From contig CAIZNN010000123.1 of the NCBI GenBank assembly GCA_903934285.1, forward strand, positions 1 to 33,143: a stretch of 33,143 bases of DNA, given 5' to 3'. Under the pieces are notes generated by a model. That model had not been told where the DNA came from. It saw only the letters and a program-made list of their open reading frames with translations, and did no database searches. Within the stretch, counting starts at the first letter, position 1. Every line of letters begins with the position of its first letter. A program made the position numbers and the translations under genes. Of the stretch, positions 1,638 through 26,846 are shown one piece after another. The DNA comes from Akkermansiaceae bacterium. GTDB lineage: Bacteria > Verrucomicrobiota > Verrucomicrobiia > Verrucomicrobiales > Akkermansiaceae.

Positions 1638-1643
1638 TAGGGG

Positions 1644-6539: not shown

Positions 6540-6589
6540 GGTGGTGGGGTAGTGGTTGGGGTGGAGTTGGAGAGGGGGAGAGAGAAAGC

Positions 6590-6705: not shown

Positions 6706-6722
6706 TGGTGGCAGAGGTCGGC

Positions 6723-7403: not shown

Positions 7404-7419
7404 CTGGGTTGGGTTTTTA

Positions 7420-7452: not shown

Positions 7453-7487
7453 AAAATTCCCAAAAAACCACAGAAAAACTGTAAATT

Positions 7488-10402: not shown

Positions 10403-11677
10403 ATGCCGATGCCGCGACTGCCCGTTTGGTTGGAACGATACCGCGCCCTGCCCCGCGGCGTGCAGGTGTTTGCCGCCGGCCAGTTTCTCATCAACCTGAT
10501 CCAGACGGCGCAGTTTCTGCTGCTCAATTTGTTTCTCAAGGACCGCGGTCTGGACGATCCAAGCATCGCCGCACTCACCTCGCAGCGGTTTGTGGCGACC
10601 TTTTTCCTGGCCATTCCGGCGGGGCTGTGGCTGCGCGGCCGGCCGCTGCGGTGGCCGCTCATCCTCGGTGCCACCCTGTTTCCGCTGATGGCCCTGGCCT
10701 CGTTGGAAACCGTCCGCTGCGGCGCCATGACCGCCGCCTCGGCCTGCTTCCTCGCCATGGGCTTCGCCGGACTCATCCTCAACGTCGCCAACCTGCCGAT
10801 GGCAATGCGCTTGGCTCCGCCCCACCAAACCAGCGAGGCCATCAGCCTGTTGTTTGCCACTTGGGCGGCGGCCAGCATTTGCGGTGGCCTGGTGGCCAGT
10901 GTCCTGCAAGGCATCGGTCACCTCGATGTCGGCGGCCTGCATCTCGTCTTCGATGAATATTCCACGTTGTTGTTGCTGACATTGGCCGGGTTTGGTGCGC
11001 CGTTCCTGTTTGCCCGGTTGCCGGATCCCGCCGCGCCCTGTCAAGCCGTCAAGCATTGGCTCCACGTCCATCGCGGCGATGTGCCGGTTCTGCTGCGCAC
11101 CCTGCTGCCCACCCTTTGCATCGCCACCGGCGCCGGGCTGAGCATCCAATTCCTCAATCTCTTTTTCAACTCGGTGTTTGGGTTGGATGCGGCCCGCTAT
11201 TCCGCCTTCGGCTCGGCCAGCAATGTGCTGGTGCTCATCGCCGGCTTGATCGTGCCGGAAGTCCGCCGCCGCTTCGGTTGGCGCGGCGCCATCATCGGCG
11301 TGCAAGCCGTCGCCGTCATCCTGCTCGCCACCATGGGTTTCACCGAACTGTGGAAACACGCCGCCTGGGCGCTGCCGCTGGCCGTGACCTGCTTCATCAT
11401 CCGCCAGCCGCTCATGAGCATGGCCGGCCCGTCCATCAGCGAACTGACCATGACCTATGTCGGCGAGCGCAACCGCGAACTGATGAGCGCCTGCAACGGC
11501 GCCGTCTGGAGCGGCGCCTGGTGGTTGGCCGCGCGCGTCTTCCAAGTCCTCCGCTCCCACGAGCTGCCCTATTGGCAGATCTTTCTAACAACCTCAATCC
11601 TCTATCTGGTGGGCACCTATTTCTATCTCAACCTGATCCACACCGTGGACCGCCGCGACGCCCAACTCCCGCCCTGA
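10403..11677 (+). CDS. Major facilitator superfamily transporter
   Basis: 424 aa from ATG 10403; ATG 10409 is two codons on and sits at better distance (9 nt) from GAGG. The hydropathy pattern reads as about 12 membrane segments, e.g. FAAGQFLINLIQTAQFLLLNL, FVATFFLAIPAGLWL, AISLLFATWAAASICGGLVASVL, VLVLIAGLIVPEV, IFLTTSILYLVGTYFYLN. A hydrophilic stretch near 205-225 is the usual central loop. After TM2 there is LRGRPLR, reminiscent of the basic MFS loop. Position behind rhaB suggests a sugar or product carrier, but no specificity motif is visible. An MFS efflux role is also possible. Confidence 0.8.
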   Translation: MPMPRLPVWLERYRALPRGVQVFAAGQFLINLIQTAQFLLLNLFLKDRGLDDPSIAALTSQRFVATFFLAIPAGLWLRGRPLRWPLILGATLFPLMALASLETVRCGAMTAASACFLAMGFAGLILNVANLPMAMRLAPPHQTSEAISLLFATWAAASICGGLVASVLQGIGHLDVGGLHLVFDEYSTLLLLTLAGFGAPFLFARLPDPAAPCQAVKHWLHVHRGDVPVLLRTLLPTLCIATGAGLSIQFLNLFFNSVFGLDAARYSAFGSASNVLVLIAGLIVPEVRRRFGWRGAIIGVQAVAVILLATMGFTELWKHAAWALPLAVTCFIIRQPLMSMAGPSISELTMTYVGERNRELMSACNGAVWSGAWWLAARVFQVLRSHELPYWQIFLTTSILYLVGTYFYLNLIHTVDRRDAQLPP

Positions 11678-11698
11678 GCGCCTACGATCCGCCTCCGC

Positions 11699-11752
11699 GG
11701 GGAGCGCCGGCGTCCCGCCGGCTGTGGGGAGCGCCGGCGTCCCGCCGGCTGT
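11699..11752. repeat. Tandem duplication of a 27-bp hairpin unit
   Basis: Two identical units at 11699-11725 and 11726-11752. Each contains GCCGGC, a 5-nt loop, then GCCGGC, so each can fold into a hairpin. They sit 21 bp downstream of the MFS stop codon. Confidence 0.85.
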
Positions 11753-11773
11753 GTGCGGCATCCTGCCGCACAC
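11751..11773. terminator. Strong hairpin, possible bidirectional terminator
   Basis: GTGTGCGGCA (11751-11760), loop TCC, then TGCCGCACAC (11764-11773): a perfect 10-bp stem between the convergent MFS and ribF genes. There is no strong T-tract after it, so terminator function is inferred from position and stem strength. Confidence 0.5.
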
Positions 11774-11793
11774 TCTTGTGCCATGACGCAGCC

Positions 11794-11887
11794 AATCCTA
11801 ATCCCTAATCCCTAATCCCTAATCCCTAATCCCTAATCCCTAATCCCTAATCCCTAATCCCTAATCCCTAATCCCTAATCCCTAATC
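11794..11887. repeat. Telomere-like heptanucleotide array (CCCTAAT)n
   Basis: About 12 perfect head-to-tail copies of ATCCCTA (11801-11884) plus partial units at both ends. It lies between convergent MFS and ribF. The unit is one base longer than vertebrate TTAGGG. Such arrays change in copy number by slippage. No function is evident. Confidence 0.95.
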
Positions 11888-11923
11888 AACAAGAAGCCGG
11901 ACAAGTCATGCCTGTCATTTGCC

Positions 11924-12847
11924 TCACGGCAGCAACCACCGGCGGGCGGCGGCGGCATCTTCCTGGATTTGTTCGCGCAGCAACTCGAGCGACCCAAAGC
12001 GTTGCTCCGGACGCAGGAATCTAACAAACTCAACCTCGATCTCACACCCGTACAGATCACCGGAAAAATCCAACACGTGCACTTCCAACACCCGGGTCGT
12101 GCCATCCACTGTCGGGCGCACGCCGAGGTTGGCCACAGCGGGCAGCACCTCGCCGCCGGCCATCGCCACGCGCACCGCCCACACGCCGTCGGGTGGGGTC
12201 AATTCTTCGCCGCTGGCCACATTGGCGGTGGGAAACCCGAGTTGCCGGCCGAGCTTGCGGCCTGCCACCACCTGCCCGCAAACCGTGTACGGCCTGCCGA
12301 GCATGCGGCCGGCCGCCTCCAGCGAGCCGTCGCGGATCGCCTGGCGTATGCGCGTGCTGCTCACCCGCTCGCCAGCCATCATCACCGGCGGCACCACCTC
12401 TAACTGAAAACCGGCGCCCGCCGCGCGCGCCCGCAAAAACTCGACATCGCCGCGGCGGTCGCGGCCGAAGCGCCAATCTTCGCCGACCGCCAGGGTGCGG
12501 ATCGGTGCCGCGAGTAATTGTTGGAAAAACTCGTCCGCCTCGAGTTGCGCCAAGGCCGCATCGAAAGGCAGCGGCACAAACAGGCCGATGCCGAGGCGGC
12601 TGACCAGTTGTGCCTTGTGCCGCAAGGTGGTGAGCACCGCGCTGGGCGCCTTGTCCGGGGCCAACAGGCGGATCGGGTGCGGATCAAAGGTCATCACTCC
12701 GGCCATGCCCCCATGGCGGGCGGCCGCCTCTACTGCCCGTGCAAGCACCGCCTGATGGCCCACATGCACGCCATCAAACATCCCGAGCGCCAGGTGCAAG
12801 GGCGCTCCCAACGCGGGCAGTTCATCCAGCCGGTTTCGTGTCAACAC
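11924..12847 (-). CDS. ribF: Bifunctional riboflavin kinase / FAD synthetase
   Basis: 307 aa from GTG 12847; a TTG at 12886 would add 13 residues. The usual RibF length (~310 aa) and the DELPALG start favour GTG. N-terminal FAD synthetase domain (about 1-165): ALGMFDGVHVGHQAVL with the HxGH nucleotidyltransferase motif, FDPHP, and GEDWRFGRDRRGD. Then SSTRIR closes this domain. C-terminal riboflavin kinase domain (about 180-300): GRKLGRQLGFPTANV, the flavin/ATP-binding PTAN motif, and AVANLGVRPTVDG, ending in EVHVLDFSGDLYG and VEFVRFLRPEQRF. It makes FMN and FAD. The usual Asn in GNFDG is Met here. It stands alone, convergent with the MFS gene. Confidence 0.95.
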   Translation of the reverse strand: MLTRNRLDELPALGAPLHLALGMFDGVHVGHQAVLARAVEAAARHGGMAGVMTFDPHPIRLLAPDKAPSAVLTTLRHKAQLVSRLGIGLFVPLPFDAALAQLEADEFFQQLLAAPIRTLAVGEDWRFGRDRRGDVEFLRARAAGAGFQLEVVPPVMMAGERVSSTRIRQAIRDGSLEAAGRMLGRPYTVCGQVVAGRKLGRQLGFPTANVASGEELTPPDGVWAVRVAMAGGEVLPAVANLGVRPTVDGTTRVLEVHVLDFSGDLYGCEIEVEFVRFLRPEQRFGSLELLREQIQEDAAAARRWLLP

Positions 12848-13029
12848 GCCCGGTAATAACCCCTCAGCCGCCAAACGAAAACCCAAATCGGCGGGTCGGG
12901 GTGCTTTGGAGGCCGGTTATGAAGCAGATCTGGCGGCCGAAAAAGGGTGCCTCCGCGGCCGCTCCAATCCAGCCACGTGCGGCGGAAAATACCGGTGGTG
13001 CAAACCGTGGGCGGTGGGGGGAAGGTTCT

Positions 13030-13110
13030 GCGAATGCCCTCGAGGAAGACCCGGTGATGTTCCTGCGTGGCCCGCGGCAAGCCGGCAAAACCCAAGTCAT
13101 TGAATCAATG
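13030..13110 (+). pseudogene. Remnant of an AAA_14-type ATPase N-terminus
   Basis: In one plus frame the translation reads ALEEDPVMFLRGPRQAGKTQ. GPRQAGKT is a Walker A (GxxxxGKT), and the preceding L-x-x-D-P-V-x-F-L-R is the typical lead-in of the AAA_14/DUF4143 ATPase family. Neither a start domain nor the rest of the gene is present. The fragment stops at the 3' end of the tRNA-Cys gene. It is interpreted as debris of a mobile or decayed gene. Confidence 0.4.
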
Positions 13111-13111
13111 C

Positions 13112-13186
13112 TGGAGGCGGGGATGGGAATCGAACCCATTAATGGTGGTTTTGCAAACCACTGCCTTACCGGTTGGCTACCCCGCC
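13112..13186 (-). tRNA. tRNA-Cys (GCA)
   Basis: 75 nt including an encoded CCA. Read on the minus strand, the acceptor arm GGCGGGG (from 13186) pairs with CCCCGCC, discriminator T, then CCA. The anticodon stem GTGGT/ACCAC encloses loop TTGCAAA with anticodon GCA at 13154-13152. The T-arm contains GGTTCGATTCCC. Clear cloverleaf. Confidence 0.96.
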
Positions 13187-13233
13187 GTACGCGTCAGCGT
13201 GTGGCCAACGATTAGGGCAGGGGCGGGCGGGTG

Positions 13234-14550
13234 TCAAGCTTGGGATTTCGGGAAATTCCCGGCGGCCCGGCCCAGCGCGGCATCGAGCGCGGCCAGGGCG
13301 TGGTCGAGTTCGCCGGGGGTGGCGCACAGCGGGGGCAGCAGCACGACGGTGTCGAGAATGGGCCGGGTGAGCAAGCCGTGGGCGCGGGCGGCCAGACAGA
13401 CCGCCTCGCCGAGGCGCGCGGCGGGCGGGAATTTCTCGCCGCTGGGCTGGCGCAATTCGACGCCGGCAATGAACCCGCACTGGCGGATTTGGTGAATCAC
13501 AGGATGGCGGGCCTGCAGGGCGGCCAGCCCTTGGCGCAAGTGCTCGATTTTGGCGGGCAGCTTGTCGAGAACTTGCTCCTGTTGGAACACCTCGAGACTG
13601 GCCAGCGCGGCGGCGCAGCCGAGCGGATGGGCCGTGAAACTATGGCCATAGTAAAACGCGTGCTCGGCGGCGCCGAGAAACGCCTGATAGATCGCGGCGG
13701 TGGTGAGGGTGGCCGCCAGCGGCAGGTAGCCGCCGGTGAGGCCTTTGGCGAGGCAGAGGAAATCCGGGATGACCTCTTCACGCTGACAGGCAAACATGCT
13801 GCCGGTGCGGCCAAACCCGGTCATCACTTCATCGAGAATCAAATGGATGCCTTGCGCATCGCACCAGGCGCGCAGGTCGGCAAGCATGCCCGCAGGCCAC
13901 GGCCGCATTTCGTTGACCCCTTGGATGAGCGGCTCGATCACCACTCCGGCAACGGCGGCGAGTTTCTCGTTAGGCAAGGCGCGCAGCTCGTCCATCGAGG
14001 CGACGTGCTGCACCGGGTAGCCCAGCCCGCGGAAGCGCGCGAAGAACCGGCCCACGCCCATCAGCGAGGCCGCGCCTAACGTGTCGCCATGGTAGCCATT
14101 TTCAAATGCGATGAACCCGTCGCGCTGCGGCTCAGCGGTTTGCAGGCGGTATTGGACCGCCATTTTGAGGGCGACCTCGATGGCGGTGGACCCGTCGTCG
14201 GAGAAAAACACGCGCTCCAGGGTGTTGTTAGGAAAGCACGCGCAGAGCCGTCCGGCCAGTGCCGCGGCCCCGGGGTGGGTGAACCCGAGAAACGAGGTGT
14301 GGGCGACGCGCTCGAGTTGCGCCCGGATGGCGGTGCCGATGTGCGGGTGGGCGTGGCCGTGGATGTTGGTCCAGATCGAGGAATTGCCATCAAAGTACCG
14401 CCGGCCCTCGGAATCCCACAACCACACCCCTTCGCCGCGCACCAACACCAACGGCTCATGTCCACGCTCACACCATTCCGCCTGGCGGGTGAACGGGTGC
14501 CAGCAATGAGCCCGGTCGGCCTCAATCCATTGGCGGGTGTCGTCGCGCAT
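13234..14550 (-). CDS. bioA: Adenosylmethionine-8-amino-7-oxononanoate aminotransferase
   Basis: 438 aa. Start placed at ATG 14550 (MRDDTRQWIEADRAHCWHPFTRQ), since BioA proteins begin with a D-x-x-H-x-WHPF-type motif; the frame is open further upstream with an alternative ATG at 14637. Class III aminotransferase motifs: WLWDSEGRRYFDG, SSIWTNIHGH, FFSDDGSTAIEVALKMA, NGYHGDTLGAASL, LILDEVMTGFGRTG with the PLP-contacting Asp240, and LAKGLTGGYLPLAAT with Schiff-base Lys269. It converts KAPA to DAPA using S-adenosylmethionine in biotin synthesis. No other bio gene is nearby. It lies 234 bp downstream of the AspT-like gene on the same strand, probably its own unit. Confidence 0.95.
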   Translation of the reverse strand: MRDDTRQWIEADRAHCWHPFTRQAEWCERGHEPLVLVRGEGVWLWDSEGRRYFDGNSSIWTNIHGHAHPHIGTAIRAQLERVAHTSFLGFTHPGAAALAGRLCACFPNNTLERVFFSDDGSTAIEVALKMAVQYRLQTAEPQRDGFIAFENGYHGDTLGAASLMGVGRFFARFRGLGYPVQHVASMDELRALPNEKLAAVAGVVIEPLIQGVNEMRPWPAGMLADLRAWCDAQGIHLILDEVMTGFGRTGSMFACQREEVIPDFLCLAKGLTGGYLPLAATLTTAAIYQAFLGAAEHAFYYGHSFTAHPLGCAAALASLEVFQQEQVLDKLPAKIEHLRQGLAALQARHPVIHQIRQCGFIAGVELRQPSGEKFPPAARLGEAVCLAARAHGLLTRPILDTVVLLPPLCATPGELDHALAALDAALGRAAGNFPKSQA

Positions 14551-14784
14551 CGCGCGGCGAGCATGCGGCTGGCAACCGGCCAAGTGCAACCCTGAAACAT
14601 CGCGGCACCTCACAAAAATGGACACCTTGGGCACCATCCGGAAACCGGCCCATGATGCCCAATGCAACAGCCCCACCTGTTTGTGGAACAAGATGAGCAA
14701 CGGCTCGGCAGGCATGGGGGATGATTCAAAGGGCGGCAACAAACACAAGCCCATCGACCCGCAAGGCGGCTGGCGCGCGCCGAG

Positions 14785-16467
14785 CTACGACATCATGGCG
14801 ACCAAGACCGGACCCCAGGCCGTCAGCACGATGTTGCCGATGGCGTAGGGCACGGTGTAGCCGAGGGCCGGCAGTTCGCTCTTGGCTTCCTCCTGGATGG
14901 CGCGCAGCGCGGCGGTGATGGTCCCCGCGCCAGAACACGCACCCAGCACAATGAGCGGGTTCATCTTCAACACATAACGGCCGAATAGAATTGCCACGGT
15001 GTGCGGGAGAATCGCCACCACCAGGCCGACCAGAACCAGGCTCAGGCCTGACTTCTGCAGCCCTGCAAAGAAGCTGGGTCCTGCCGCCAGCCCGACGCAG
15101 GCCATGAAGACCGTCAACCCGACGGTGTCGAAGACCCACATGGCGGACTCGGGGATGCGGCCGAATGTCGGGCGAACCGCACGCAGCCAGCCAAACACCA
15201 GCCCCATGATCAGCGCCCCTCCGCTGGCGGTGAGCGTGAGTGGCAGGCCGCCAACAACGACGGTGAGCAATCCCACCAGGCCGCCGAGGAAGATGCCCAG
15301 CCCGACGAAGATCATGTCCGTCATCACCGTCTGGCGATCAGCGTAGCCGAGGCTCTTGGCGGCCCGCTCGACGTCCACTTCGCCACCGATGAGAGTCAGC
15401 AGATCGCCGCGCTCCAGCCGCGTGTCGGGGGAAAACGGCATCGACTGGCCGGCCCGGGTCAGCTTCTTCAAAAACACACCGCGCGCGACATCCGTGCCTG
15501 CCAACTCGGCGAGGCTCGAGCCGGCAAGTGATTTGTTAGTTATGACCACGTCGAGAAATTCGATCGGGAAATCCAGCAGTTCCTTGTCATCGACCTCCTG
15601 GCCGATCTCCGCGCCGCGGGCCAGCAGCAGTTCCGTGCGCGTCAGCACTGCGATGACGTCGCCCTCGCGAATGATCGTGGCAGGGTCCGGCGCGATGATC
15701 ACGCCATCCCTGCGGATTCGCGAGATGAAGACGCGCGAGACTCTGGGCCGCGCCTCCAGTTCCGCCACGCTGCGGTTGAGCAGGTCCGGGTGGCTGACCC
15801 GGTAGGCGCGCACCGCGAGTTTCTGATAGGCGGACAACATTTCGGGTTCCCCCTTGCCGGAACCTGAGATTAGCGCCTGGAGTTGGCGGGCCTCCTCCTT
15901 GAGATTGCAGCGCATCAGCTTGGGACCGACGTTGGGCAGGAACCAGACGATGAAGCCGGTGCCGACCAGATAAGTGACGGCGTAAGCTACTGGAATGTTG
16001 TTGGTCAGGATCGTTTTGTCCGCGGTCGGGATGGCGAGGCGGCCGATGGCATCGCTGGCGGTGCCGATGACCGTGGATTCGGTGAATGCCCCGGCGAGCA
16101 GGCCGGCGGTCGTGCCCATGTCATAGCCGAGGAGTTTCGCCGCGAAGAACGCGGCGAGCAGACAGGTGACGCAGAGCACCAAGGTGAGGGCGACCTGGGG
16201 CAAGGCATCGCCCTTGAGGCCGCGGAAGAACTGCGGCCCGACCTTGTAGCCGGTGGTGAAGAGGAACAAATCAAAGAACACATATTTGACCACGACGGGC
16301 ACCTGGATGTTCAACTGCCCGATGAGAACACCGGCCAGCAGCGTGCCCACCACCGTCCCGAGGCTGAACGAGCCGAGCTTGACGCGGCCGATGAAGAAAC
16401 CGATCGCCAGGGTGAGGAAGACCGCAAGTTCCTGATGCTCTCGAAGGGCGGTGGTGAGATAGTCCAT
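14785..16467 (-). CDS. AspT-like aspartate:alanine exchanger family transporter 1
   Basis: 560 aa, ATG at 16467. The AAEx family (AspT of Tetragenococcus, Bacteroidetes homologues) exchanges a substrate amino acid for its decarboxylation product. Layout: N-terminal membrane half (about 13-180, including LAVFLTLAIGFFIGR and VKYVFFDLFLFTTGYKVGPQFF), a cytosolic region (about 195-375) with two RCK_C/TrkA_C-like domains (LEARPRVSRVFISRI...IIREGDVIAVL and LAELAGTDVARGVFLKKL...LERGDLLTLIGG), and a C-terminal membrane half (about 388-560, with CVGLAAGPSFF). GACSGAGTITAALRAIQEEAKSELPALGY near the C-terminus is the family signature. It lies 21 bp after the OprD-like gene. Substrate unknown; context suggests a basic amino acid/amine pair. 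Confidence 0.87.
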   Translation of the reverse strand: MDYLTTALREHQELAVFLTLAIGFFIGRVKLGSFSLGTVVGTLLAGVLIGQLNIQVPVVVKYVFFDLFLFTTGYKVGPQFFRGLKGDALPQVALTLVLCVTCLLAAFFAAKLLGYDMGTTAGLLAGAFTESTVIGTASDAIGRLAIPTADKTILTNNIPVAYAVTYLVGTGFIVWFLPNVGPKLMRCNLKEEARQLQALISGSGKGEPEMLSAYQKLAVRAYRVSHPDLLNRSVAELEARPRVSRVFISRIRRDGVIIAPDPATIIREGDVIAVLTRTELLLARGAEIGQEVDDKELLDFPIEFLDVVITNKSLAGSSLAELAGTDVARGVFLKKLTRAGQSMPFSPDTRLERGDLLTLIGGEVDVERAAKSLGYADRQTVMTDMIFVGLGIFLGGLVGLLTVVVGGLPLTLTASGGALIMGLVFGWLRAVRPTFGRIPESAMWVFDTVGLTVFMACVGLAAGPSFFAGLQKSGLSLVLVGLVVAILPHTVAILFGRYVLKMNPLIVLGACSGAGTITAALRAIQEEAKSELPALGYTVPYAIGNIVLTAWGPVLVAMMS

Positions 16468-16488
16468 GGCGGGGTTGCCTTTTTTCCG

Positions 16489-17862
16489 TTAGAACGGGAT
16501 GTCGTAGCTGCAGATCATGCGCAAATCGTCGAGGTCATCGGGATTGACGCCGTGCTCGTCGACCATGGCATAGCGCAGCCGGAGTGACAGCCCCTTGAGG
16601 GTTCCGTTAGGTGGAACCCACTGCAGATTGAAATTGTATTCATCGCGCGCGTATTGGCCCGCTTGGTCGGGGGTCGAGCCATGCACCCACAGGGCGTAGG
16701 TGCTCAGCCCCGCGAGGCAGGGGAAGTTATAGGCGGCGCGCAACATGAACGCCCCTTCGCCGTCGCGGAAGAAATCCTCCACCTGCACCGAAGTGTAGCC
16801 GGGATGGCCGCTCCACGGGCTGCGCATGTCGGCATCCCCGCTGGCCTGGGTATAGGCGGCGGTGAACAGGGCCGGTCCCACCGGCACCTCGGCCTTGAGG
16901 CCGATCTGATTGGCCTCAAAGCACTCGCCGGTCAGCGCGTCATCCCCGGTGCTGCTCTGATTGGAGAACTGCAGCGCGAGGCGCAGTTCGAGATCCCTGG
17001 GCAGCGCCACGGCATACTTCGCTTCGGTGTAGAAGATGTTGATGACGTCGGCGCTGTAGTAGTCAGCCGCCCCGAAGGAGAACTTGCCTATCTTGTAGAG
17101 CCCGCCGGCGGCAAACACCCCCCGGTCAATATCGGCACCGGCGTCTTGCGACATGGCCACGAATTCATCCGAGTTGCGTTCCTTGATCTGGCTGAAATAG
17201 CCGGCCATGTAGTTCAACGTGCCCTTGTCACCGCCGAGGTCGCATTTGCCCTGCAGGGTGATCGCCTCGAAGGTGTTAGGGGTCATGCGGGTGTCATTGC
17301 GGTTGATGTAGGGAGTGTCATACTCCTTGCGTCCGCCATAGATGTGAAGATCCCCGGTGAGTTTGATGTCAGCGTAGAGTTCACCCAGCACGCTATAACT
17401 CTCCTGCCCCGGCGCCAGCAGCAGGGTGCCGTCCCGATCCTCTTCGCCGATGAGCTTTTCGGACATGTATCCGGTCACCCCGAAGGCGACGTGCTCCCAA
17501 AAGTATCCGGTCTTGAGCCCCGCATAGCCGCCAATGGCCCAGGCCTCGCTTTCCGAAGTGTCATACTTGTTGCGGTCCAAATACATGGTGCGGATCTGCG
17601 CCTTGAACTTGGTGTCCTGCAATGCCTCGATGCGTTTCTTGAGCCGCCAGTCGCGATCGGTCCAATCAAAGCCCTCATCCAGCGGGCTTTGCCCCTGCTC
17701 GATGGAGGAGGGCGCGCCACTGTCGTCAGGCGGATTGGGCGGTGCCGCGGCGGGTGCGGGTGCGGCCACGGCGCAGGCGGTGAGCGCCGCGCAGAGCATG
17801 GCGGGCAACAATTCCGCCGCGCCGCGCCGCATTGCATGCTCCATTTTGTGGGATTGGTTCAT
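16489..17862 (-). CDS. OprD-family outer-membrane porin
   Basis: 457 aa, ATG at 17862. Signal peptide: basic MRRGAAELL then hydrophobic core to about residue 34. LTAC (27-30) could be a lipobox, and cleavage after AVA is also possible; an Ala/Pro-rich linker follows. The mature part has alternating beta strands and ends in Phe (YDIPF), as outer-membrane barrels do. YDTPYINRNDTRMTPNTFEA (181-200) closely matches the OprD signature D-T-P-x-I-N...R-M-x-P-N-T-F-E, and AWAIGGYAGLKTGYFW is also OprD-like. OprD-type porins are known for uptake of basic amino acids and small acids. It sits between two AspT-like exchangers, giving an outer-membrane entry route for the same module. Confidence 0.8.
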   Translation of the reverse strand: MNQSHKMEHAMRRGAAELLPAMLCAALTACAVAAPAPAAAPPNPPDDSGAPSSIEQGQSPLDEGFDWTDRDWRLKKRIEALQDTKFKAQIRTMYLDRNKYDTSESEAWAIGGYAGLKTGYFWEHVAFGVTGYMSEKLIGEEDRDGTLLLAPGQESYSVLGELYADIKLTGDLHIYGGRKEYDTPYINRNDTRMTPNTFEAITLQGKCDLGGDKGTLNYMAGYFSQIKERNSDEFVAMSQDAGADIDRGVFAAGGLYKIGKFSFGAADYYSADVINIFYTEAKYAVALPRDLELRLALQFSNQSSTGDDALTGECFEANQIGLKAEVPVGPALFTAAYTQASGDADMRSPWSGHPGYTSVQVEDFFRDGEGAFMLRAAYNFPCLAGLSTYALWVHGSTPDQAGQYARDEYNFNLQWVPPNGTLKGLSLRLRYAMVDEHGVNPDDLDDLRMICSYDIPF

Positions 17863-17916
17863 GATAGGTTGAATTGGTGCTTTGGTGTGGCAGGGCTCAG
17901 CGATGTTGGATTCGGG

Positions 17917-19617
17917 TTACTGGGAGAACACCATGGCGAAATAACCGAAGACGGTCAGCAACACCCCGGACACGGCGTAGCCCACGGGGAACCCGACCCA
18001 CGGCACGCTGCTGTCGATTTCCTTGGACGCCTCGCGCGCCGGACCGGAATGCGAGCGTGCGCCGGCGACTCCGCCCATGAGCACGGCCGGGTTGATTTTC
18101 ATGAAGTGAAAGCCGATGGCCCACGTGAGGATGGGCGGGAGGGTGCTGGCGATAAAGCCGGCCAGGAAGATGAACAGCGCGATCTTGCCGGTGAGTTGCG
18201 CAAGCAGGGTGGAGCCGGCGTTGATGCCGACGATGGCGATGAAGGTGATGAGGCCCAAGTCTTCGAGGATGTTGCGCGCCGCGTTGGGCGTGCTGCCGAA
18301 AAAGCGCAGCCGCGACACGATGGACGAAACGAAAATGCCCGAGAGCAACAGGCCGCCGGCATTGCCCAAGCCGACCGAGAAATTGCCCACCGGCACATTG
18401 ATCTGGCCGATGAGCAGGCCTGACACCATGCCCACCGCGAGGGTCAACAAGTCGGTGGCCGTGCTGGGGCGCGCGACCTTGCCGACCATTGAGGCGAGTT
18501 TGTTGACCGCGTTCTTGAGGCCGGCGACAAACAACACATCGAAGCGCTGCAACTCGGTGTCGGCACCGACGGGGATCGGCACGCCGCCGCGCTCGAGGCG
18601 CAGCAATTGCAACTGGCCGGCGAAGTCCTCATTGCGGAACTCCTTGAGCGCCCTGCCCTCAAGACCCTTCGCCGTCACCAGGATTTCCGCCTGGTCAATC
18701 GGAATGTTCAACGCCGTCGCGTCGGCGATTTCCGCGCCGATGAGGCCCATGTTGGCGGTGAGGTCCTCGGTCTTGCCGCCGAGCGCGATGATGTCGTTAG
18801 CCCGCAACGCCAGCTCCGGATTGGCACCGACCGATTCGCCGGCGCGGACCACGTTGAGAATCCGGTATTGCGGGTACTGCTGGCGAAATCGGGCAATGGT
18901 CTGGCCGACCACCGCCGGGTTTTCTAACTGGTAAGCGCGCAGCCCCGCAGGGCGGTAGCCGGTGAGCCCGGCGTCATCGACATTGGCCACGCCGTGGGCC
19001 TTTTCGTAATCAATGGCCGCCTGCTTGGCGTCCACGCCCCACCAGCGCGGCAGATACTTGCAGATCAAAATGATGCCCACCGTGCCCCAGATGTAAGTGA
19101 CGCCATAGCCGAGGGCAATCATCGCCGACACCGACTCGGCGGTGGCACCCGCCGGCAACTTGTAAGCGCCCTGGGACACCGCCATCTCGGCGGTGCCAAT
19201 GGCGGCGGACATGGTTTGGGAGCCGGCGAGAATGCCCCCCACCGCACCCGGCGGCAGGCCGAACCATTTTGCCGACAGCACCACTAACACCAAACCGAAA
19301 ACACTGCACACCACCGCCAGAATGGTGAACTTCAACCCGTCTTTCTTGAGGCTGTTGAAGAACGACGGCCCCACGCGCAGGCCGACCCCGTACATGAACA
19401 AATAGTAGAAGAGTGACTTGGCGAAGTTGTCGAGCTGGAGCTTCACGCCATAGGTCGAGGCCCAGGTCGCCAGCGCGCAACCGACAACGACAGCGGCGGC
19501 GACCATCCCCAAGCCGTAGCCCTTGATGTTGAACTTACCCACGTAGACTGCCATTCCGATGGTGAAGAACAGCAGGATGAAGGGGTTGGTTTTCAGGAAT
19601 TCAAAGAATGCTTGCAT
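17917..19617 (-). CDS. AspT-like aspartate:alanine exchanger family transporter 2
   Basis: 566 aa, ATG at 19617 (MQAFFEFLKTNPFILLFFTIGMAVYVGK); a longer frame adds nine residues without support. Same architecture as the other exchanger: N-terminal membrane half with DNFAKSLFYYLFMYGVGLRVGPSFFNSL and GGILAGSQTMSAAIGTAEMA, a central cytosolic region with two RCK_C-like modules (about 220-390), and a C-terminal membrane half with IVGINAGSTLL. The family signature near the C-terminus is changed to GGVAGARSHSGPAREASKEIDSSVPWVGF, unlike the GAGTITAAL form in paralogue 1. The two probably differ in substrate or form a hetero-oligomer. It lies 49 bp after the decarboxylase. Confidence 0.87.
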   Translation of the reverse strand: MQAFFEFLKTNPFILLFFTIGMAVYVGKFNIKGYGLGMVAAAVVVGCALATWASTYGVKLQLDNFAKSLFYYLFMYGVGLRVGPSFFNSLKKDGLKFTILAVVCSVFGLVLVVLSAKWFGLPPGAVGGILAGSQTMSAAIGTAEMAVSQGAYKLPAGATAESVSAMIALGYGVTYIWGTVGIILICKYLPRWWGVDAKQAAIDYEKAHGVANVDDAGLTGYRPAGLRAYQLENPAVVGQTIARFRQQYPQYRILNVVRAGESVGANPELALRANDIIALGGKTEDLTANMGLIGAEIADATALNIPIDQAEILVTAKGLEGRALKEFRNEDFAGQLQLLRLERGGVPIPVGADTELQRFDVLFVAGLKNAVNKLASMVGKVARPSTATDLLTLAVGMVSGLLIGQINVPVGNFSVGLGNAGGLLLSGIFVSSIVSRLRFFGSTPNAARNILEDLGLITFIAIVGINAGSTLLAQLTGKIALFIFLAGFIASTLPPILTWAIGFHFMKINPAVLMGGVAGARSHSGPAREASKEIDSSVPWVGFPVGYAVSGVLLTVFGYFAMVFSQ

Positions 19618-19666
19618 GATTGGATGCGGTTGTGTTGTTAGCAAGGGCGGCGGATTTCGCGGAGGT

Positions 19667-22417
19667 CTATTTCTGCATGGTCTGGTTGGCCGCGGCGAGC
19701 TTGTCGGGCTTGAGCAATTTCAAGCCCTGGGCGGCGTGATAGCCGTGGATTTCCTTCACATCGAGCTTGCGCATGTAGGTGATCGTGTCGGCTTTGATCA
19801 CCTGGCCGGGCACCATGATCGGGAACCCGGGCGGATAGGGGATGACCAAATTCGCCGAGATCATTTGCGGGCCGTTCTGGAGCCGCTCGTCCACTTCCTT
19901 GCTGTGCAGCATCACAAAGTCACAGTTGTCTTCGTTGTAGGCCATGTAGAACGCCGGCCGCATGTTGCCCTCATTGCTGAGGGCATGCGGGTTGTCGCGA
20001 AACGCGTCGTGGAAGCAACTGAAGTTAGGCAGGTCGGGCACGTCGACCATCAGCGACTTCACCCGCGCGTCAAATGCCGCCTGGCCTCCCTGCTTCAGGC
20101 GCTGCTCGATTTCGCGCGAGAGGTCGGCCAGCGCCTTGATCAGCAGTGCGGCGTCGCTATGGGTGTTGTTGATGTTGGTTTGCACCAGCACACTGTTGCG
20201 CGAGGTCTTGTTGATTTGGATGTCGAAGCGGTCCGCGAGGATGCCCTTGAACTGCGTGCCATCGAACCCGGCGGCACCGCAGATGAGCGTCAGGCGGGTG
20301 GGATCCAGCGCGAATTCGTCCTCGTCCCAAGCCTTGATCACATCGGTCCAAGTCGAGTGCGGCGGGCCATAGTCCTTGAGTCCGGAGCTGCGGAATTCGG
20401 CCGGAATCATGTCCTCCGGGGTGGCCACCTTGAAGTACTTCGAAATCAGCGGATGCGTGTTGATCGTGCGCCGGAGCCGGATCGCCAGCGCCGTCATGGC
20501 CATGGTCAGGCCATAGCCTTCGAGTTCCATCTGACGCCGCGCCAAATCCAGCGAGGCGATCAACTGCAGGTTGGGCGAGGTCGAGGTGTGGGTCAGGAAG
20601 GCCTCCTCGAACGGGCCCTCGACCTTGTGGAAGTCCTCGTCCCAAATCAGCATCATCGAGCCTTGGCGGAATGCCGACATCGACTTGTGGGTCGAGTTGG
20701 TCTGGTACACACGGATGCGCACCTTGTCCGGATCCGGCAGCAGATGCATGTCGAGCAGAGCGGGGTTTTTCGGGTCGATCGCGCCGGCCTTGGCGACCCA
20801 TGCCTGATATTCGGCGCGGTAGGCCGCATCGCGGTAGCGCGCGGTGAGTGCGGCGGCGGCGCCCATGCCGGTGCGGCGGCGGTGGAACGGGTTGAAGCGG
20901 GCGAAGCCGAACCAAGCCTCGTCCCAGAGAAACACCAGATCGGGCTTGATTGCCAGGCACTCTTCCATCACCCGCCGCGGGTTGTACATGTGGCCGTCAA
21001 AGGTGCAGTTGGTCATGTCGATGGCCTTGACCCGGTGGAGCGTGCCCTCGGCCATGCAGTTGAGCAGCGCCTGCTTGATGGTGCGCAGCGGCACCGCACC
21101 GTACATCGAGTACTGGGTGAGCGGATAGGCCTCGACGTAGTAGGGCTGGGCGCCGGCCAGCACGAACCCGTAGTGGTGCGACTTGTGGCAGTTGCGGTCC
21201 ACAATGACGATATCACCCGGCTGGCACACCGCCTGCACCACGATCTTGTTGGAGGTGGAGGTGCCGTTGGTGCCCAGATAGGCGCGCTTGGCACCGAAGG
21301 CGCGCGCGATCATTTCCTGCATCTTCTTGATGTTGCCGGTCGGCTCGAGCAAGCTGTCGAGACCGCCAGTGGTGGCACAGGATTCGGCAAAAAAGATGTT
21401 GGCGCCGTAAAACTGCCCCATGTCGCGGATCCAGTTCGAGCGGAACACCGACTTGCCGCGAGCGATGGGCAACGCGTGAAAGGTGCCAATCGGGCGCTGC
21501 GCATATTTCTTCAGGTTGTCGAAGTACGGCGTCTCGTAGCGGTCGCGGATGCCCTCCAGAATCGACAGGTGAATCTCCATGGGCTCCTCGACGTGGTGAA
21601 ACATGCGCCGCACCGGCGCCACTTCATCGCTACCGGCCAGACTCTCGGCCGTGCGGTCCGACATCAGATAGATATCAATTTCGGGGCGGCAGTTCTTGAT
21701 TGCCTTGGCCAGCGCGGTGGCCAGCGCGCCGGGCGCGAGGTTGGCCGGATCGACCTGGATATGGCGACTCAGGAACCCCTGCAGGTCCGGCATGTCGTGG
21801 CGCGACGCGAACTGGAAGCCATCGGCAACCACCACGGCCTGCACGTTGTCATTGGCCAGGATGGCCAGTCCCGCGTCTTCAAAGCTGCCGACAATGACCG
21901 CTTCGTATTGGAACGCGTCTTCAGGGCGGCGCAGGCGCCGCATGTCCTCTTGCACGCGCTCCCAGCCGGCCGGGTCAGACGGGGTGACGACCAACACTTC
22001 GAAGTACGGCTTGCGTGAGTCAGCCCGGCTCACGTCGGGCGGCAGCGCCGCCTCGAGCGGGCGGTCTTTGCCTTCAGCCGCCAGATCCCAGGCAAAGTCC
22101 TCGCGGCGGAAGTCGCCGGTCAGCAACGCCGCGGAGATCTTCTGGACCAGCCGCGCACAGGACGCGGCGTCGCGCTGCTCGATTGCCGCGGCGAGGGCGC
22201 CCAGCAGACGCGGGCCCGGATAGGCCCAGCAATGTTCGAGCCGGGTCAGCGCTGCGAACGTGCGCGCCGCTTCGGCGTGCAAACTCCCGGCCTGCGCTCC
22301 CGTGGCCGTCGCCCACGCGCGGCTCAACGCGTGCAACTCACGCCACTGGTCGGTCCGGTGGTCCGCGGCGGCAAAGATAGGAGTGAGATCCTGGGTGGGA
22401 GATGGGTCAGTGCTCAT
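19667..22417 (-). CDS. Large Orn/Lys/Arg-type PLP-dependent decarboxylase
   Basis: 916 aa from ATG 22417; a GTG at 22441 overlaps the presumed -10 box and is unlikely. Residues 1-135 are an extension with no recognised domain. Residues 137-250 are an N-terminal receiver-like 'wing' domain (VLVVTPSDP...VIVGSFEDAG). The fold-type I PLP core spans about 295-700: NGTSTSNKIVVQAV, DRNCHKSHHYG with His411 to stack on PLP, FLWDEAWFGF with Asp499, and TNSTHKSMSAFRQGSMM with Schiff-base Lys578. The C-terminal domain follows to 916. It is longer than E. coli LdcI (715) and AdiA (756). It removes CO2 from ornithine, lysine or arginine, consuming a proton; which one cannot be read from the sequence. First gene of a four-gene operon with two exchangers and a porin. 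Confidence 0.88.
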   Translation of the reverse strand: MSTDPSPTQDLTPIFAAADHRTDQWRELHALSRAWATATGAQAGSLHAEAARTFAALTRLEHCWAYPGPRLLGALAAAIEQRDAASCARLVQKISAALLTGDFRREDFAWDLAAEGKDRPLEAALPPDVSRADSRKPYFEVLVVTPSDPAGWERVQEDMRRLRRPEDAFQYEAVIVGSFEDAGLAILANDNVQAVVVADGFQFASRHDMPDLQGFLSRHIQVDPANLAPGALATALAKAIKNCRPEIDIYLMSDRTAESLAGSDEVAPVRRMFHHVEEPMEIHLSILEGIRDRYETPYFDNLKKYAQRPIGTFHALPIARGKSVFRSNWIRDMGQFYGANIFFAESCATTGGLDSLLEPTGNIKKMQEMIARAFGAKRAYLGTNGTSTSNKIVVQAVCQPGDIVIVDRNCHKSHHYGFVLAGAQPYYVEAYPLTQYSMYGAVPLRTIKQALLNCMAEGTLHRVKAIDMTNCTFDGHMYNPRRVMEECLAIKPDLVFLWDEAWFGFARFNPFHRRRTGMGAAAALTARYRDAAYRAEYQAWVAKAGAIDPKNPALLDMHLLPDPDKVRIRVYQTNSTHKSMSAFRQGSMMLIWDEDFHKVEGPFEEAFLTHTSTSPNLQLIASLDLARRQMELEGYGLTMAMTALAIRLRRTINTHPLISKYFKVATPEDMIPAEFRSSGLKDYGPPHSTWTDVIKAWDEDEFALDPTRLTLICGAAGFDGTQFKGILADRFDIQINKTSRNSVLVQTNINNTHSDAALLIKALADLSREIEQRLKQGGQAAFDARVKSLMVDVPDLPNFSCFHDAFRDNPHALSNEGNMRPAFYMAYNEDNCDFVMLHSKEVDERLQNGPQMISANLVIPYPPGFPIMVPGQVIKADTITYMRKLDVKEIHGYHAAQGLKLLKPDKLAAANQTMQK

Positions 22418-22691: not shown

Positions 22692-23315
22692 ATGAGTGGA
22701 ATCCTTGAACAAGCTGTCGTCTATGTTCTCGATGACGAACCCGAGATGGTCAAGGCGCTCACGCGCTTGCTGCGCAGCAGCGGCTTCGCGGTCCGCGGTT
22801 TCACTTCGGCGCGCGAGTTCCTTGTGGCGTTTCGGGCCGACGACCACTCTTGCCTGGTGCTCGACGTGGCGATGCCGGAATTGGACGGGCTGAAATTGCA
22901 GCAACGTCTCACCCATCATGGCATCCTCATCCCGCTCGTTTTTCTAACAGGATACGGCGACATCCCCATGAGCGTGCGTGCGGTCAAGGCCGGCGCCACC
23001 GATTTCCTCACCAAGCCGGTGGATGCCGTGGCCTTGGTCCAAGCCGTGCATGCCGCCCTGCGCGTGGCCGCGACGCGGCGGCAGGAGATCCGGGACGCCG
23101 CGGCGTTGGCCACCCGCATGGCCGCCCTCACGCTGCGCGAACGTGAGGTGATGCGGCATGTCGTTACCGGGCAACTCAACAAGCAAATCGCCGCCGATCT
23201 GGGCACCGGCGAGCAAAACATCAAACTGCACCGCGCCCATATCATGAAGAAAATGGGCGTGGACTCACTCGCCGAGCTGGTTCGCGCCGCCGTGCGCCTC
23301 GGCATCGGGACCTAG
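22692..23315 (+). CDS. FixJ/NarL-like response regulator (receiver + LuxR helix-turn-helix)
   Basis: 207 aa, ATG at 22692. Receiver domain (about 8-122): acidic pocket DDEPEM (14-19), phospho-acceptor Asp58 in LVLDVAMPELDG, Thr86 in FLTGYGDIPMSVRAVKAGA, and Lys108 in FLTKPVD. This GYGDIPMSVRAMK-type segment is typical of the FixJ/TodT group. C-terminal LuxR-type HTH (about 146-205): LTLREREVMRHVVTGQLNKQIAADLGTGEQNIKLHRAHIMKKMG. It is divergent from the decarboxylase operon over 274 bp, so control of that operon is likely. The histidine kinase at 24690-26846 is the natural partner. Confidence 0.93.
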   Translation: MSGILEQAVVYVLDDEPEMVKALTRLLRSSGFAVRGFTSAREFLVAFRADDHSCLVLDVAMPELDGLKLQQRLTHHGILIPLVFLTGYGDIPMSVRAVKAGATDFLTKPVDAVALVQAVHAALRVAATRRQEIRDAAALATRMAALTLREREVMRHVVTGQLNKQIAADLGTGEQNIKLHRAHIMKKMGVDSLAELVRAAVRLGIGT

Positions 23316-24689: not shown

Positions 24690-26846
24690 TCATGATGGGT
24701 CCGGAGACCCGGCCACAGGCAGTTCGAAGTGGAACACGGCACCGCCCTCGGGGTGGGGTTCCGCCCACAGTTGGCCGTGATGGGCCGCCACGATAGAGCG
24801 GCAAATGGCCAGGCCCAAGCCCAGGCCCTGGGGCTTGGTGGTGTAGAAGGGCTGGAAGAGACGCTCGGCATCCCTTGGCAACCCGCTGCCCTCATCCCGC
24901 ACCGAGGCACGCACCTTGTTTTGGTCGAGCCTCGTCTGGAGCCGGAGCCGACGCATGCCAGGGTCATTGGTGGCCATGGCATCGGCCGCGTTGAGAATGA
25001 GATTGAGCACAAGTTGCTGGAGTTGCACGTGGTCGCCCGCGATCAGCGGCAAATCCGGTGCCAATTCGCAAACCGCGGTGACGCCGCGCCTGCTGAGGTC
25101 GGCCCGGACAAGGTGCAACACCCCCTCGATGACTTGGTTGAGCAGGAGCGGCTGCAGCGACAGTTGGCCGCGCTTGAGCAAGGCGCGCAGCCGCTCGATA
25201 ACCTCGCCTGCACGGCGGTCCGCAGCCACGATGTCCGCCAGGATGGCCTGCACCTCGGTCACATCCGGCGGATCCTGGAGCAGATATGCCTGCGCGGCTT
25301 GGGCATTGCTGAGGATGACGCCGAGTGGCTGGTTCAATTCATGTGCCAGCGAACCGGACAGCGCACCCAGCGAGTTCACGCGCGCCAGATGCGTCAGGTT
25401 GCCACGCAGTTCCTGGGCTTCCAATTCGGCGCGTTTGTACGGGGTGATATCGCGCACCACGCCGCAGGTACGGACTGCGCAACCGGTGGCGCTGCGCGTG
25501 ACGACGCCGGCGAGGTGATGAATCCACTTCTCCCCGGTGCCCGGATGCAGGTAGCGATACTCGATTGAAATGCGATCAATTCTGCCGTCGTGCAGGCGCG
25601 CACGTTCGTCTAACATGATCTGGCGGTCGTCGGGGTGCAGCTGTGCCATCCCGAACTCCAGCGCCTGAAGACCCCGGTGGTGGCCGGCGGGAACCCCGCA
25701 AATAGCGTGAAACCGCTCGTCGGCAAAAGTGGCCAATTCGCCAAAGTCAACTTCGTAGTAGCCCAGGCCGGCCAGTTCGACCCCCGCTGCCAGACGGGCC
25801 TCGCTTGTGCGAAATGCCTCTTCGGCCCACTTGCGCTCCAACGCGTTGCTGAAGATTTGCGCGACCAGTTGCAGCCGCTTCACCAGCCCATCGGGCCAGG
25901 CGCGTTCCCGGCGCATGGTGTTGAAGGACAAGGCCCCGATGATCGCCCCCCCCGGTGCCAGCGGGAAAGTCAGGATGGCCTTGATGCCGAGATGGCGCCA
26001 GACCTCCCGATCGCGCGCGGCCTCGGCCGGCACCTGCGCAAGCGAGGAGACCCGAATCAACCGGCCGGCCTCCAGTTGCTGCTGGCTCCATGGGAAATGC
26101 TCATGGGCATACATCGGAGCAGGGAGCGGCGGGCCGCCCAGCGGCCGATAGAGGTGGGTCATGGTGACGATCCGCGGCGTTTCCATCGACCACTGCCACA
26201 GCGCCGCCAGATCGAGGCCGAGCAATTCGCAGATGCGGCGCTGGGCCTCCACGATCTCGCGGTCGACCTCACCGGGCGCCAGGTTCACAAACCTCGCCGA
26301 GATGTCGGCGATCAGGGTCACCTCGGCCTTGCCCTGGAGGCGTTTGGCCCGGTTCACCAGCAACCCGATGAGCAGGGCGGCTTGCAGCAGGCAAAACCCC
26401 ATGGTGCCGGCGATCGGCCACCGGTAATGCTCCCAGAAACCCGGCTGGGGAAACTGGATGGTGCTGCCAGCGGGCGGGCGGGCGGCACCAGCGCCCCGGC
26501 GCTCAAGTTCACGCCAATCATAATCGGGAGCTGCGCCGCCAAGGATTTGTGGCGGGATGCTCTCCGGCGCCGCGCCGCCCAAAATGCGGATCGCCGCGCG
26601 GGCCCCACGCGCGCCGACCTCGATTTCCTGAAAAAGCCGGCCGCCGATTGGTCCCAAGCCAAACTCGTAGCTGATGCTGCGGAAGGCCGCCGCCGCAGTG
26701 CCAAACGGCGCCACCCCGCGTCCTAACGAGTTGCGCTTAAGCACCCGTTCGGGACCGGTCGCCGCCGCACAACACATCGTCGCAGCCAGCAGCAGCCCCA
26801 AGCAAGCGCGGTGCCATGGCATGATGAAAAATGACCGGGTCATCAT
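24690..26846 (-). CDS. Membrane histidine kinase with truncated ABC-substrate-binding-like sensor
   Basis: 718 aa, ATG at 26846 (a second ATG follows at once). N-terminal signal/anchor (about 8-28). Residues 31-57 resemble the start, and 60-118 (FGLGPIGGRLFQEIEVGARGAR, then PPQ...DYDWRELERRG) the end, of the PF04392-like periplasmic sensor that normally spans ~300 aa; the middle is missing. Membrane segment about 144-164, then a GAF-like domain (about 175-335), a PAS/PAC domain (about 345-470, with RYLHPGTGEKWIH and GVVRDITPYKRAE), HisKA with His502 in SLAHELNQPLGVILSNA, and HATPase_c with NLILNAADAM, DEGSGLP and GLGLGLAICRS. It probably phosphorylates the two nearby response regulators. With its sensor cut down, signals may come through GAF or PAS instead. 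Confidence 0.9.
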   Translation of the reverse strand: MMTRSFFIMPWHRACLGLLLAATMCCAAATGPERVLKRNSLGRGVAPFGTAAAAFRSISYEFGLGPIGGRLFQEIEVGARGARAAIRILGGAAPESIPPQILGGAAPDYDWRELERRGAGAARPPAGSTIQFPQPGFWEHYRWPIAGTMGFCLLQAALLIGLLVNRAKRLQGKAEVTLIADISARFVNLAPGEVDREIVEAQRRICELLGLDLAALWQWSMETPRIVTMTHLYRPLGGPPLPAPMYAHEHFPWSQQQLEAGRLIRVSSLAQVPAEAARDREVWRHLGIKAILTFPLAPGGAIIGALSFNTMRRERAWPDGLVKRLQLVAQIFSNALERKWAEEAFRTSEARLAAGVELAGLGYYEVDFGELATFADERFHAICGVPAGHHRGLQALEFGMAQLHPDDRQIMLDERARLHDGRIDRISIEYRYLHPGTGEKWIHHLAGVVTRSATGCAVRTCGVVRDITPYKRAELEAQELRGNLTHLARVNSLGALSGSLAHELNQPLGVILSNAQAAQAYLLQDPPDVTEVQAILADIVAADRRAGEVIERLRALLKRGQLSLQPLLLNQVIEGVLHLVRADLSRRGVTAVCELAPDLPLIAGDHVQLQQLVLNLILNAADAMATNDPGMRRLRLQTRLDQNKVRASVRDEGSGLPRDAERLFQPFYTTKPQGLGLGLAICRSIVAAHHGQLWAEPHPEGGAVFHFELPVAGSPDPS

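What the first reader, a model, noticed from the sequence alone, without database searches (positions are those of the whole stretch)
14785..22417. Decarboxylase + two AspT-like exchangers + OprD-like porin as one operon
Four minus-strand genes with gaps of only 21-54 bp encode a 916-aa Orn/Lys/Arg-type decarboxylase, two paralogous AspT-family exchangers and an OprD-like porin. AspT is known from aspartate decarboxylation coupled to proton motive force. Pairing that exchanger family with a basic-amino-acid-type decarboxylase and an outer-membrane porin is an arrangement I do not recall as a described system. It could generate proton motive force or acid resistance from outer membrane to cytosol.
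Basis: partly seen in the sequence, partly recalled or inferred. Interest (0 to 1): 0.6.

Follow-up and report, generated by a model that had tools for sequence, protein, structure and literature searches.

The report
Acid-consuming decarboxylase, exchanger and porin operon
Four neighbouring genes look like one acquired machine that lets an amino acid in through the outer membrane, strips CO2 from it (using up an internal proton) and swaps the product out; the sequence suggests the amino acid is an acidic one such as aspartate or glutamate, not lysine, arginine or ornithine as the gene's family name implies.

Summary
In detail: decarboxylase (DC), AspT exchanger a, OprD-family porin and AspT exchanger b lie on the minus strand, 21-54 bp apart. 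The contig is native to its genome, yet 0 of 58 relatives have the DC: probably an acquired cassette. The exact four-gene order recurs in four Lysobacteraceae, the first three genes in four more. DC beside AspT is wider: 68 of 77 judgeable loci.

PLP residues are kept, but CadA's E526 position is Asn in 92 of 92 family members, E663 is Gln (90 of 90), and Arg/Lys are fixed at 320, 322, 584 and (91 of 92) 740. The porin is nearest to carboxylate porins OpdH/OpdO. One exchanger class occurs exactly once in 71 of 74 loci; in two genomes without this DC it sits beside aspartate 4-decarboxylase.

Best reading: acidic amino acid in, decarboxylation, neutral product out, giving proton motive force and acid relief. 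No activity is shown; the nearest solved homologue, Rv2531c, is a substrate orphan. The layout parallels Chlamydia AaxABC, built from other protein families.

The parts
19667..22417 (-). PLP decarboxylase of the OKR fold, Rv2531c-type, 916 aa; PLP lysine K578, H411, D499 kept; R320, K322, R584, N736, R740, Q872 family-specific
17917..19644 (-). AspT-a, AspT/AAEx-family exchanger of the class that carries Arg in the C-half motif (GGVAGARSHSGPA); inferred partner of the decarboxylase; likely true start 19617
16489..17862 (-). OprD-family outer-membrane porin, nearest solved relatives OpdH (cis-aconitate) and OpdO (pyroglutamate)
14785..16467 (-). AspT-b, passes the aspartate-alanine antiporter cut-off; same cluster as exchangers that directly follow aspartate 4-decarboxylase in Bosea, Rokubacteria and other loci
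22692..23315 (+). FixJ-like response regulator, divergent from the operon; possible regulator, membership not shown
   Evidence: a regulator of the same broad cluster lies within 6 kb upstream in 15 of 67 loci with room
24690..26846 (-). PAS/GAF sensor histidine kinase, possible partner of the regulator; membership not shown

Best explanation
A horizontally acquired decarboxylation / electrogenic-exchange operon for an acidic amino acid. The porin lets the anionic amino acid cross the outer membrane; AspT-a swaps the external acidic amino acid (net charge -1) for its neutral decarboxylation product; the OKR-fold enzyme removes the alpha-carboxylate in the cytosol with uptake of one proton; AspT-b is a second route for the same or a closely related acid. 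Net result: negative charge moves in, a proton is consumed inside, so proton motive force is made and the cytosol is deacidified. Shown: genes, families, order, conservation, residue changes. Inferred: co-transcription, substrate, direction of exchange, physiology. Substrate commitment: acidic rather than basic (about 0.6); within that L-aspartate (giving beta-alanine) slightly ahead of L-glutamate (giving GABA), because AspT-b passes the aspartate-alanine antiporter cut-off in a genome without an AspD over cut-off and because exchangers of the DC-partner class serve AspD elsewhere.
For: (1) PLP machinery kept but the side-chain end rebuilt: E526 (CadA; Glu also in SpeF, Thr in AdiA) is N736 in 92 of 92, E663 (Glu in CadA, AdiA and SpeF) is Q872 in 90 of 90 with two gaps, PGHxGG is LPIARGK with R320 and K322 in 92 of 92, S373 is R584 in 92 of 92, P530 is R740 in 91 of 92. 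[quoted passage not shown] (2) Exactly one exchanger with Arg in the C-half motif in 71 of 74 loci and in 46 of 46 loci with two or more exchangers; 69 of the 71 lie next to the DC, against 18 of 50 others. (3) In same-phylum genomes without this DC, the 2 of 29 checked AspT-family proteins that have this Arg sit directly beside an AspD over cut-off, so this exchanger class serves an acidic-amino-acid decarboxylase there. (4) AspD lies in 24 of the 80 DC loci (three members checked, all over cut-off). (5) The porin's best solved matches are OpdH and OpdO; no chain named OprD is listed even at E up to 10. (6) One DC locus (Rhizobium T136 plasmid) also has carbonic anhydrase, AspD and an HdeA/HdeB-family acid chaperone. 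(7) The known AspD-AspT couple makes proton motive force (PMC9508256 passages). (8) Own SpeA and two PanD genes elsewhere argue against a biosynthetic need.
Against: No activity or transport was measured. AdiA, an arginine decarboxylase, lacks the E526-type Glu too, so that loss alone does not exclude arginine. The role of E526 is recalled (Glu532 of Lactobacillus 30a ODC), no paper in reach gave it; I had no coordinates to place R320, K322, R584, R740 or Q872 relative to substrate, and the model is of low confidence at 308-322 and 339-359. Some new Arg/Lys may serve the cofactor or dimer. The Rv2531c homologue lacks K322 (Ala) and R740 (Ile). The Arg-type exchanger class is not DC-specific: 14 of 71 are next to AspD, and 7 of 50 others are too. 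Three loci have a DC but no whole Arg-type exchanger (L006, L076; in L015 AspT-a is split in two ORFs). Seven of 80 loci have a DC with room and no AspT found (L044, L060, L062, L066, L067, L068, L089), and in L070 the AspTs are on the other strand. Six more distant plasmid DCs (41-48%) have no AspT. GC content does not mark the cassette as foreign.
Confidence: 0.6

Rival explanations
1. A basic-amino-acid system: the DC decarboxylates Arg (or Lys/Orn), and the AspT-family exchangers have shifted to swap it for agmatine, cadaverine or putrescine.
For: Family membership (PF01276 over cut-off); AdiA also lacks the E526-type Glu; Rv2531c is described as distantly similar to arginine decarboxylases in particular (PMC12910592 passage).
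Against: Loss of E663 and gain of conserved Arg/Lys; exchanger class shared with AspD loci; porin nearest to OpdH/OpdO; own SpeA present. A knockout of the M. tuberculosis homologue was reported as not crucial for growth on arginine (PMC4569260, one passage).
Confidence: 0.2
2. The DC acts on another anionic or unusual amino acid (for example a modified acidic amino acid or an amino dicarboxylate from soil organic matter), with exchangers of the same charge logic.
For: The same residue and porin evidence as the best explanation; OpdH/OpdO carry cis-aconitate and pyroglutamate by name; more distant DC family members sit beside a protein annotated biotin carboxylase and a C45/AAT-family protein, so substrates in the family may vary.
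Against: AspD neighbours and the aspartate-alanine antiporter cut-off passed by AspT-b point to common Asp/Glu.
Confidence: 0.15
3. The four genes are neighbours without joint function: DC with AspT-a forms one unit, and porin and AspT-b are independent uptake genes.
For: AspT-b clades differ between the window and Lysobacter at the same slot; four Lysobacter loci lack the second exchanger; most DC-AspT loci lack an OprD-like porin (11 of 80 have one, one of them on the other strand).
Against: Exact order and tight spacing in 4 Lysobacteraceae besides the window; the slot after the porin is refilled by a different exchanger clade, which suggests selection for a second exchanger there.
Confidence: 0.15

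Closest known systems
Rv2531c of Mycobacterium tuberculosis (PDB 9n0n, 9n0o, 9n0p)
   Same: Closest solved homologue: E 4e-224 over residues 20-908; model matches 9n0o_B with Z 46.8, rmsd 1.8, 760 aligned. Shares R320, R584, N736, Q872.
   Different: Ala for K322 and Ile for R740. Substrate unknown (PMC12910592 passages). Its genomic surroundings were not examined.
AspD-AspT aspartate decarboxylation couple (Tetragenococcus halophilus)
   Same: AspT-family exchanger with an amino acid decarboxylase; electrogenic acid-for-neutral exchange making proton motive force (PMC9508256 passages).
   Different: The window has an OKR-fold enzyme, not AspD; no AspD over cut-off in its genome; two exchangers; a porin.
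AaxABC arginine:agmatine exchange system of Chlamydia
   Same: Outer-membrane porin, decarboxylase and inner-membrane antiporter in one operon (PMC2720952 passages).
   Different: There a pyruvoyl decarboxylase and an arginine:agmatine antiporter; here PLP OKR fold, AspT family and OprD family. That AaxC is an APC-type and AaxA an OprB-type protein is recalled.
E. coli CadA/CadB, AdiA/AdiC, SpeF/PotE
   Same: OKR-fold decarboxylase next to its antiporter; fold shared (Z 26-30).
   Different: Basic substrates; those antiporters are of another family (recalled); residue differences.
Zymomonas mobilis ZMO1682-ZMO1681 (AspD-AspT operon raised by acetate)
   Same: Decarboxylase plus AspT linked to weak-acid stress (PMC4189746 passages).
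   Different: AspD-type enzyme, no OKR-fold enzyme described there.

Membership tests
OKR (Orn/Lys/Arg) decarboxylase fold family | PF01276 and PF03711 over cut-off | tested here: met
   226.3 vs 27 and 26.6 vs 24.2 bits
OKR (Orn/Lys/Arg) decarboxylase fold family | PLP lysine and PLP-contacting His/Asp aligned with CadA K367, H245, D330 | tested here: met
   K578, H411, D499 in 92 of 92; roles recalled
Named lysine, arginine or ornithine decarboxylase (NCBIfam models) | Curated model cut-off | tested here: not met
   Best 179.2 vs 968 (LdcC); 165.6 vs 1167 (AdiA model); 139.5 vs 794 (ODC)
Named lysine, arginine or ornithine decarboxylase (NCBIfam models) | Activity on a basic amino acid | not testable with these tools
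   needs an enzyme assay
Rv2531c-type decarboxylase | Full-length similarity and fold including the N-terminal region | tested here: met
AspT / AAEx exchangers | Two Asp-Al_Ex halves with TrkA_C domains between | tested here: met
   both proteins
Aspartate-alanine antiporter (TIGR03802) | Equivalog cut-off 546.95 | tested here: inconclusive
   AspT-b 640.4 passes, AspT-a 391.7 does not
OprD/Occ porins | PF03573 over cut-off | tested here: met
   120.2 vs 25 bits
OccK (carboxylate) branch of OprD porins | Closer to OccK than to OccD members | tested here: inconclusive
   Best matches OpdH, OpdO and four 'probable porin' chains; no chain named OprD up to E 10; no tree was made, branch names recalled
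AspD-AspT system | Aspartate 4-decarboxylase present | tested here: not met
   best own-genome match 47.7 vs 435.1 bits; the assembly is 96.9% complete
AaxABC system | Pyruvoyl-type decarboxylase | tested here: not met
   PLP OKR-fold enzyme instead

The most novel reading that the evidence does not exclude
The Rv2531c-type decarboxylases, routinely annotated from the Orn/Lys/Arg family, are a separate branch of that fold that turned to acidic amino acids; with an Arg-bearing class of AspT exchangers they form a widespread, mobile aspartate- or glutamate-driven proton-motive-force and acid-resistance module, which in Lysobacteraceae and in this genome runs from an anion-selective outer-membrane porin to the cytosol. 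It would also suggest where to look for the substrate of the orphan Rv2531c.
Probability: 0.5. Interest if true: 0.72.

Novelty: new variant of a known kind. Interest (0 to 1): 0.6.

Why it matters
If true, a family annotated across many Pseudomonadota as basic-amino-acid or arginine decarboxylase has the wrong substrate class; an acid-stress and energy module would be recognised in rhizobia, acetic acid bacteria, Lysobacteraceae and some soil Verrucomicrobiota; and the OKR fold would gain its first acidic-substrate branch that I know of (recalled, not searched exhaustively).

Tried and rejected
Contamination of the assembly: rejected, because flanking genes on both sides have congeneric relatives (RibF 77% and 75%, BioA 83% and 82%, the 966-aa protein 80% in one congener and about 52% in others). 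BioA as a fifth operon member: not accepted. Empty site: bioA surroundings of 5 congeners held no match to the cassette and none to the other window proteins tried, so synteny is lost and no clean empty site was seen. Foreign base composition: none. 'Arg-type exchanger is specific to this DC': my first reading; the control showed the same Arg beside AspD in two genomes, so I widened it to exchangers coupled to acidic-amino-acid decarboxylases; AspD was looked up in only 5 of the control genomes (2 with, 3 without). Conserved Lys/Arg at the AspT R76 position (recorded in a reference list seen) as a marker: no, it varies in both classes. Polyamine biosynthesis or pantothenate supply as the sole role: unlikely (SpeA and two PanD elsewhere). 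Papers: ten searches of the open-licence library listed no paper that I recognised as describing the DC-AspT pair; I looked at passages of PMC12910592, PMC4569260, PMC8503589, PMC7866039, PMC9508256, PMC11796326, PMC4832331, PMC4189746, PMC2720952 and PMC7806604 only, none in full. PMC8503589, PMC7866039, PMC11796326 and PMC7806604 gave nothing on the side-chain-binding residue beyond what is cited; the Rv2531c structure paper and two others are not held. The structure comparison lists many PLP fold-type I enzymes below the OKR rows; these show only the shared fold.

The ORF caller extends some starts too far (for example AspT in L023, which the script therefore counted as not adjacent; by eye it is, which would make 69 of 77), and the neighbour clusters were annotated from one to three members each. 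The 74 loci and 92 proteins include the window and plasmid loci.

Full report
1. What is there. The four genes are as reported: DC (916 aa), AspT-a (566 or 575 aa), porin (457 aa) and AspT-b (560 aa) on the minus strand with gaps of 21-54 bp. Pfam puts them over cut-off as OKR decarboxylase, Asp-Al_Ex exchangers and OprD porin. Upstream and divergent lies a FixJ-like response regulator, then a PAS/GAF histidine kinase; downstream bioA, a tRNA-Cys and ribF.

2. Native contig, acquired cassette. None of the 58 relatives searched (36 of the same genus) has a DC match at E 1e-3 or better. Genes on both sides of the cassette have congeneric relatives at 75-83% (RibF, BioA) and 80% in one congener (966-aa protein), so the contig is not a stray. 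In 387 genomes sampled from the phylum, only the window has a near-full-length match; the next is 39% over part of the protein, and the rest of the 95 genomes with matches are weaker or ordinary OKR relatives. Base composition does not set the cassette apart.

3. Conservation. A scan of named genomes gave the 80 best of 579 relatives. The closest DC is in a MAG labelled Thermodesulfobacteriota (79%), then Lysobacter and Pseudoxanthomonas (72-75%). The exact order DC, AspT, porin, AspT is in Lysobacter arvi, Pseudoxanthomonas koreensis, Lysobacter soli and Lysobacteraceae bacterium P; DC, AspT, porin in four more Lysobacter. A Chthoniobacterales MAG has DC, AspT, AspD, porin, AspT, and a Rokubacteriota MAG DC, AspT, AspD, AspT, porin. 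An AspT lies beside the DC on the same strand in 68 of 77 loci with enough contig (69 counting one that the script missed), and 24 of 80 loci hold an AspD-cluster gene (three cluster members tested, all over the AspD cut-off). Of eleven plasmid regions fetched, five have the pair; the six without it are the more distant DCs.

4. The decarboxylase. Its best solved relative is Rv2531c (E 4e-224), and the predicted model (mean pLDDT 80.7) superposes on 9n0o_B with Z 46.8 (rmsd 1.8, 760 aligned), against Z 26-30 for LdcI, AdiA and ODC. Rv2531c's activity has not been established (PMC12910592, passages), and its knockout was reported as not crucial for growth on arginine (PMC4569260, one passage). 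Aligned with E. coli CadA, AdiA and SpeF, the PLP residues are kept (H411, D499, K578), but E526 of CadA (Glu in SpeF, Thr in AdiA) is Asn, E663 (Glu in all three) is Gln, the PGHxGG loop is LPIARGK, S373 is Arg and P530 is Arg. Over 92 family proteins, R320, K322, R584 and N736 are in 92, R740 in 91, and Q872 in the 90 that reach it. [quoted passage not shown] Replacing Glu by amides and adding Arg/Lys is what an anionic side chain would ask for. This is inference: no coordinates were available to me, and AdiA shows that the first Glu can be lost in a basic-substrate enzyme.

5. The exchangers. Among 121 AspT proteins from 74 loci, 71 have Arg at the seventh position of the C-half motif (GAR in AspT-a). 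There is exactly one such protein in 71 of 74 loci and in all 46 loci with two or more exchangers; 69 of 71 are next to the DC, against 18 of 50 others. The exceptions are two Phyllobacterium loci with an AspT-b-type exchanger, and L015, where AspT-a is split. As a control I took the 29 best AspT-family proteins outside the window from 288 same-phylum genomes: 27 lack the Arg, and the 2 that have it sit directly beside an AspD over cut-off, in genomes not listed as having a DC match. So this class is coupled to decarboxylases and, where the partner is AspD, the substrate is expected to be aspartate. AspT-b clusters with exchangers that follow AspD in Bosea, Rokubacteriota and other loci, yet this genome has no AspD over cut-off (47.7 vs 435.1 bits) and no other AspT. 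In Lysobacter the same slot is filled by another exchanger cluster, as if a second exchanger is needed but not a particular one.

6. The porin. The nearest solved chains are OpdH (cis-aconitate), a 'probable porin', and OpdO (pyroglutamate); no chain named OprD, the basic-amino-acid porin, is listed even at E 10. Eleven of 80 loci have an OprD-like gene, one of them on the opposite strand.

7. How it most likely works. Acidic amino acid passes the porin, enters by AspT-a (and AspT-b), is decarboxylated by the DC with one proton consumed, and the neutral product leaves by AspT-a. That is the logic of AspD-AspT in Tetragenococcus, described as making enough proton motive force to drive ATP synthesis (PMC9508256, passages). 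An acid-stress setting is suggested by one Rhizobium plasmid locus with carbonic anhydrase, AspD and an HdeA/HdeB-family chaperone. Aspartate is my first choice, glutamate close behind; a basic substrate remains possible (0.2).

8. Compared with what is known. Porin, decarboxylase and antiporter in one operon is known from Chlamydia AaxABC (PMC2720952, passages) with unrelated enzyme and transporter; AspT with a decarboxylase is known with AspD. New here are the OKR-fold enzyme with AspT, two exchangers, the OprD-type porin, and the likely switch of substrate class. I found no description of it in ten searches of an open-licence library (calls listed under Tried and rejected); subscription literature was not searchable.

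Noticed in passing
window 213-4199 and 4630-5805, 8289-10085: Two EutN/CcmL shell-protein genes, a class II aldolase, an aldehyde dehydrogenase, an acetate kinase and an FGGY sugar kinase: looks like a sugar-degrading bacterial microcompartment locus (rhamnose/fucose type, recalled).
   Followed up: partly
window 3517-3843: A PD-(D/E)XK_3-family protein sits between microcompartment genes.
   Followed up: no
L009 (Rhizobium sp. T136 plasmid) 4986-16187: Carbonic anhydrase, DC, AspT, AspD and an HdeA/HdeB-family chaperone within about 11 kb: an apparent acid-stress island.
   Followed up: partly
L007, L010, L012, L013 and relatives: More distant DCs (41-48%) have no AspT but sit beside a protein annotated biotin carboxylase (no Pfam match in three tested) and, in L007, a C45/AAT-family protein plus ABC transporter genes; a dipeptide-type pathway is conceivable.
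   Followed up: partly
rhizobial and related DC loci (clusters 9, 8, 3, 6): A SulP/STAS anion transporter gene (21 of 22 within 5 kb of the DC), PPK2 (17 of 22), and DUF3300 and DUF2950 genes recur around the DC; one member of each was identified by Pfam.
   Followed up: partly
L015 8363-10031: AspT-a is split into two ORFs in the nearest relative of the window's cassette.
   Followed up: no
window AspT-b slot (14785-16467) versus L017, L019, L035, L094: The second exchanger at the same place in the operon belongs to different clusters in the window and in Lysobacteraceae, as if replaced.
   Followed up: partly
window 14744-14763: A weak terminator-like stem on the minus strand at the AspT-b/bioA boundary; the region has 13 such sites against 7.6 expected in shuffles.
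   Followed up: no
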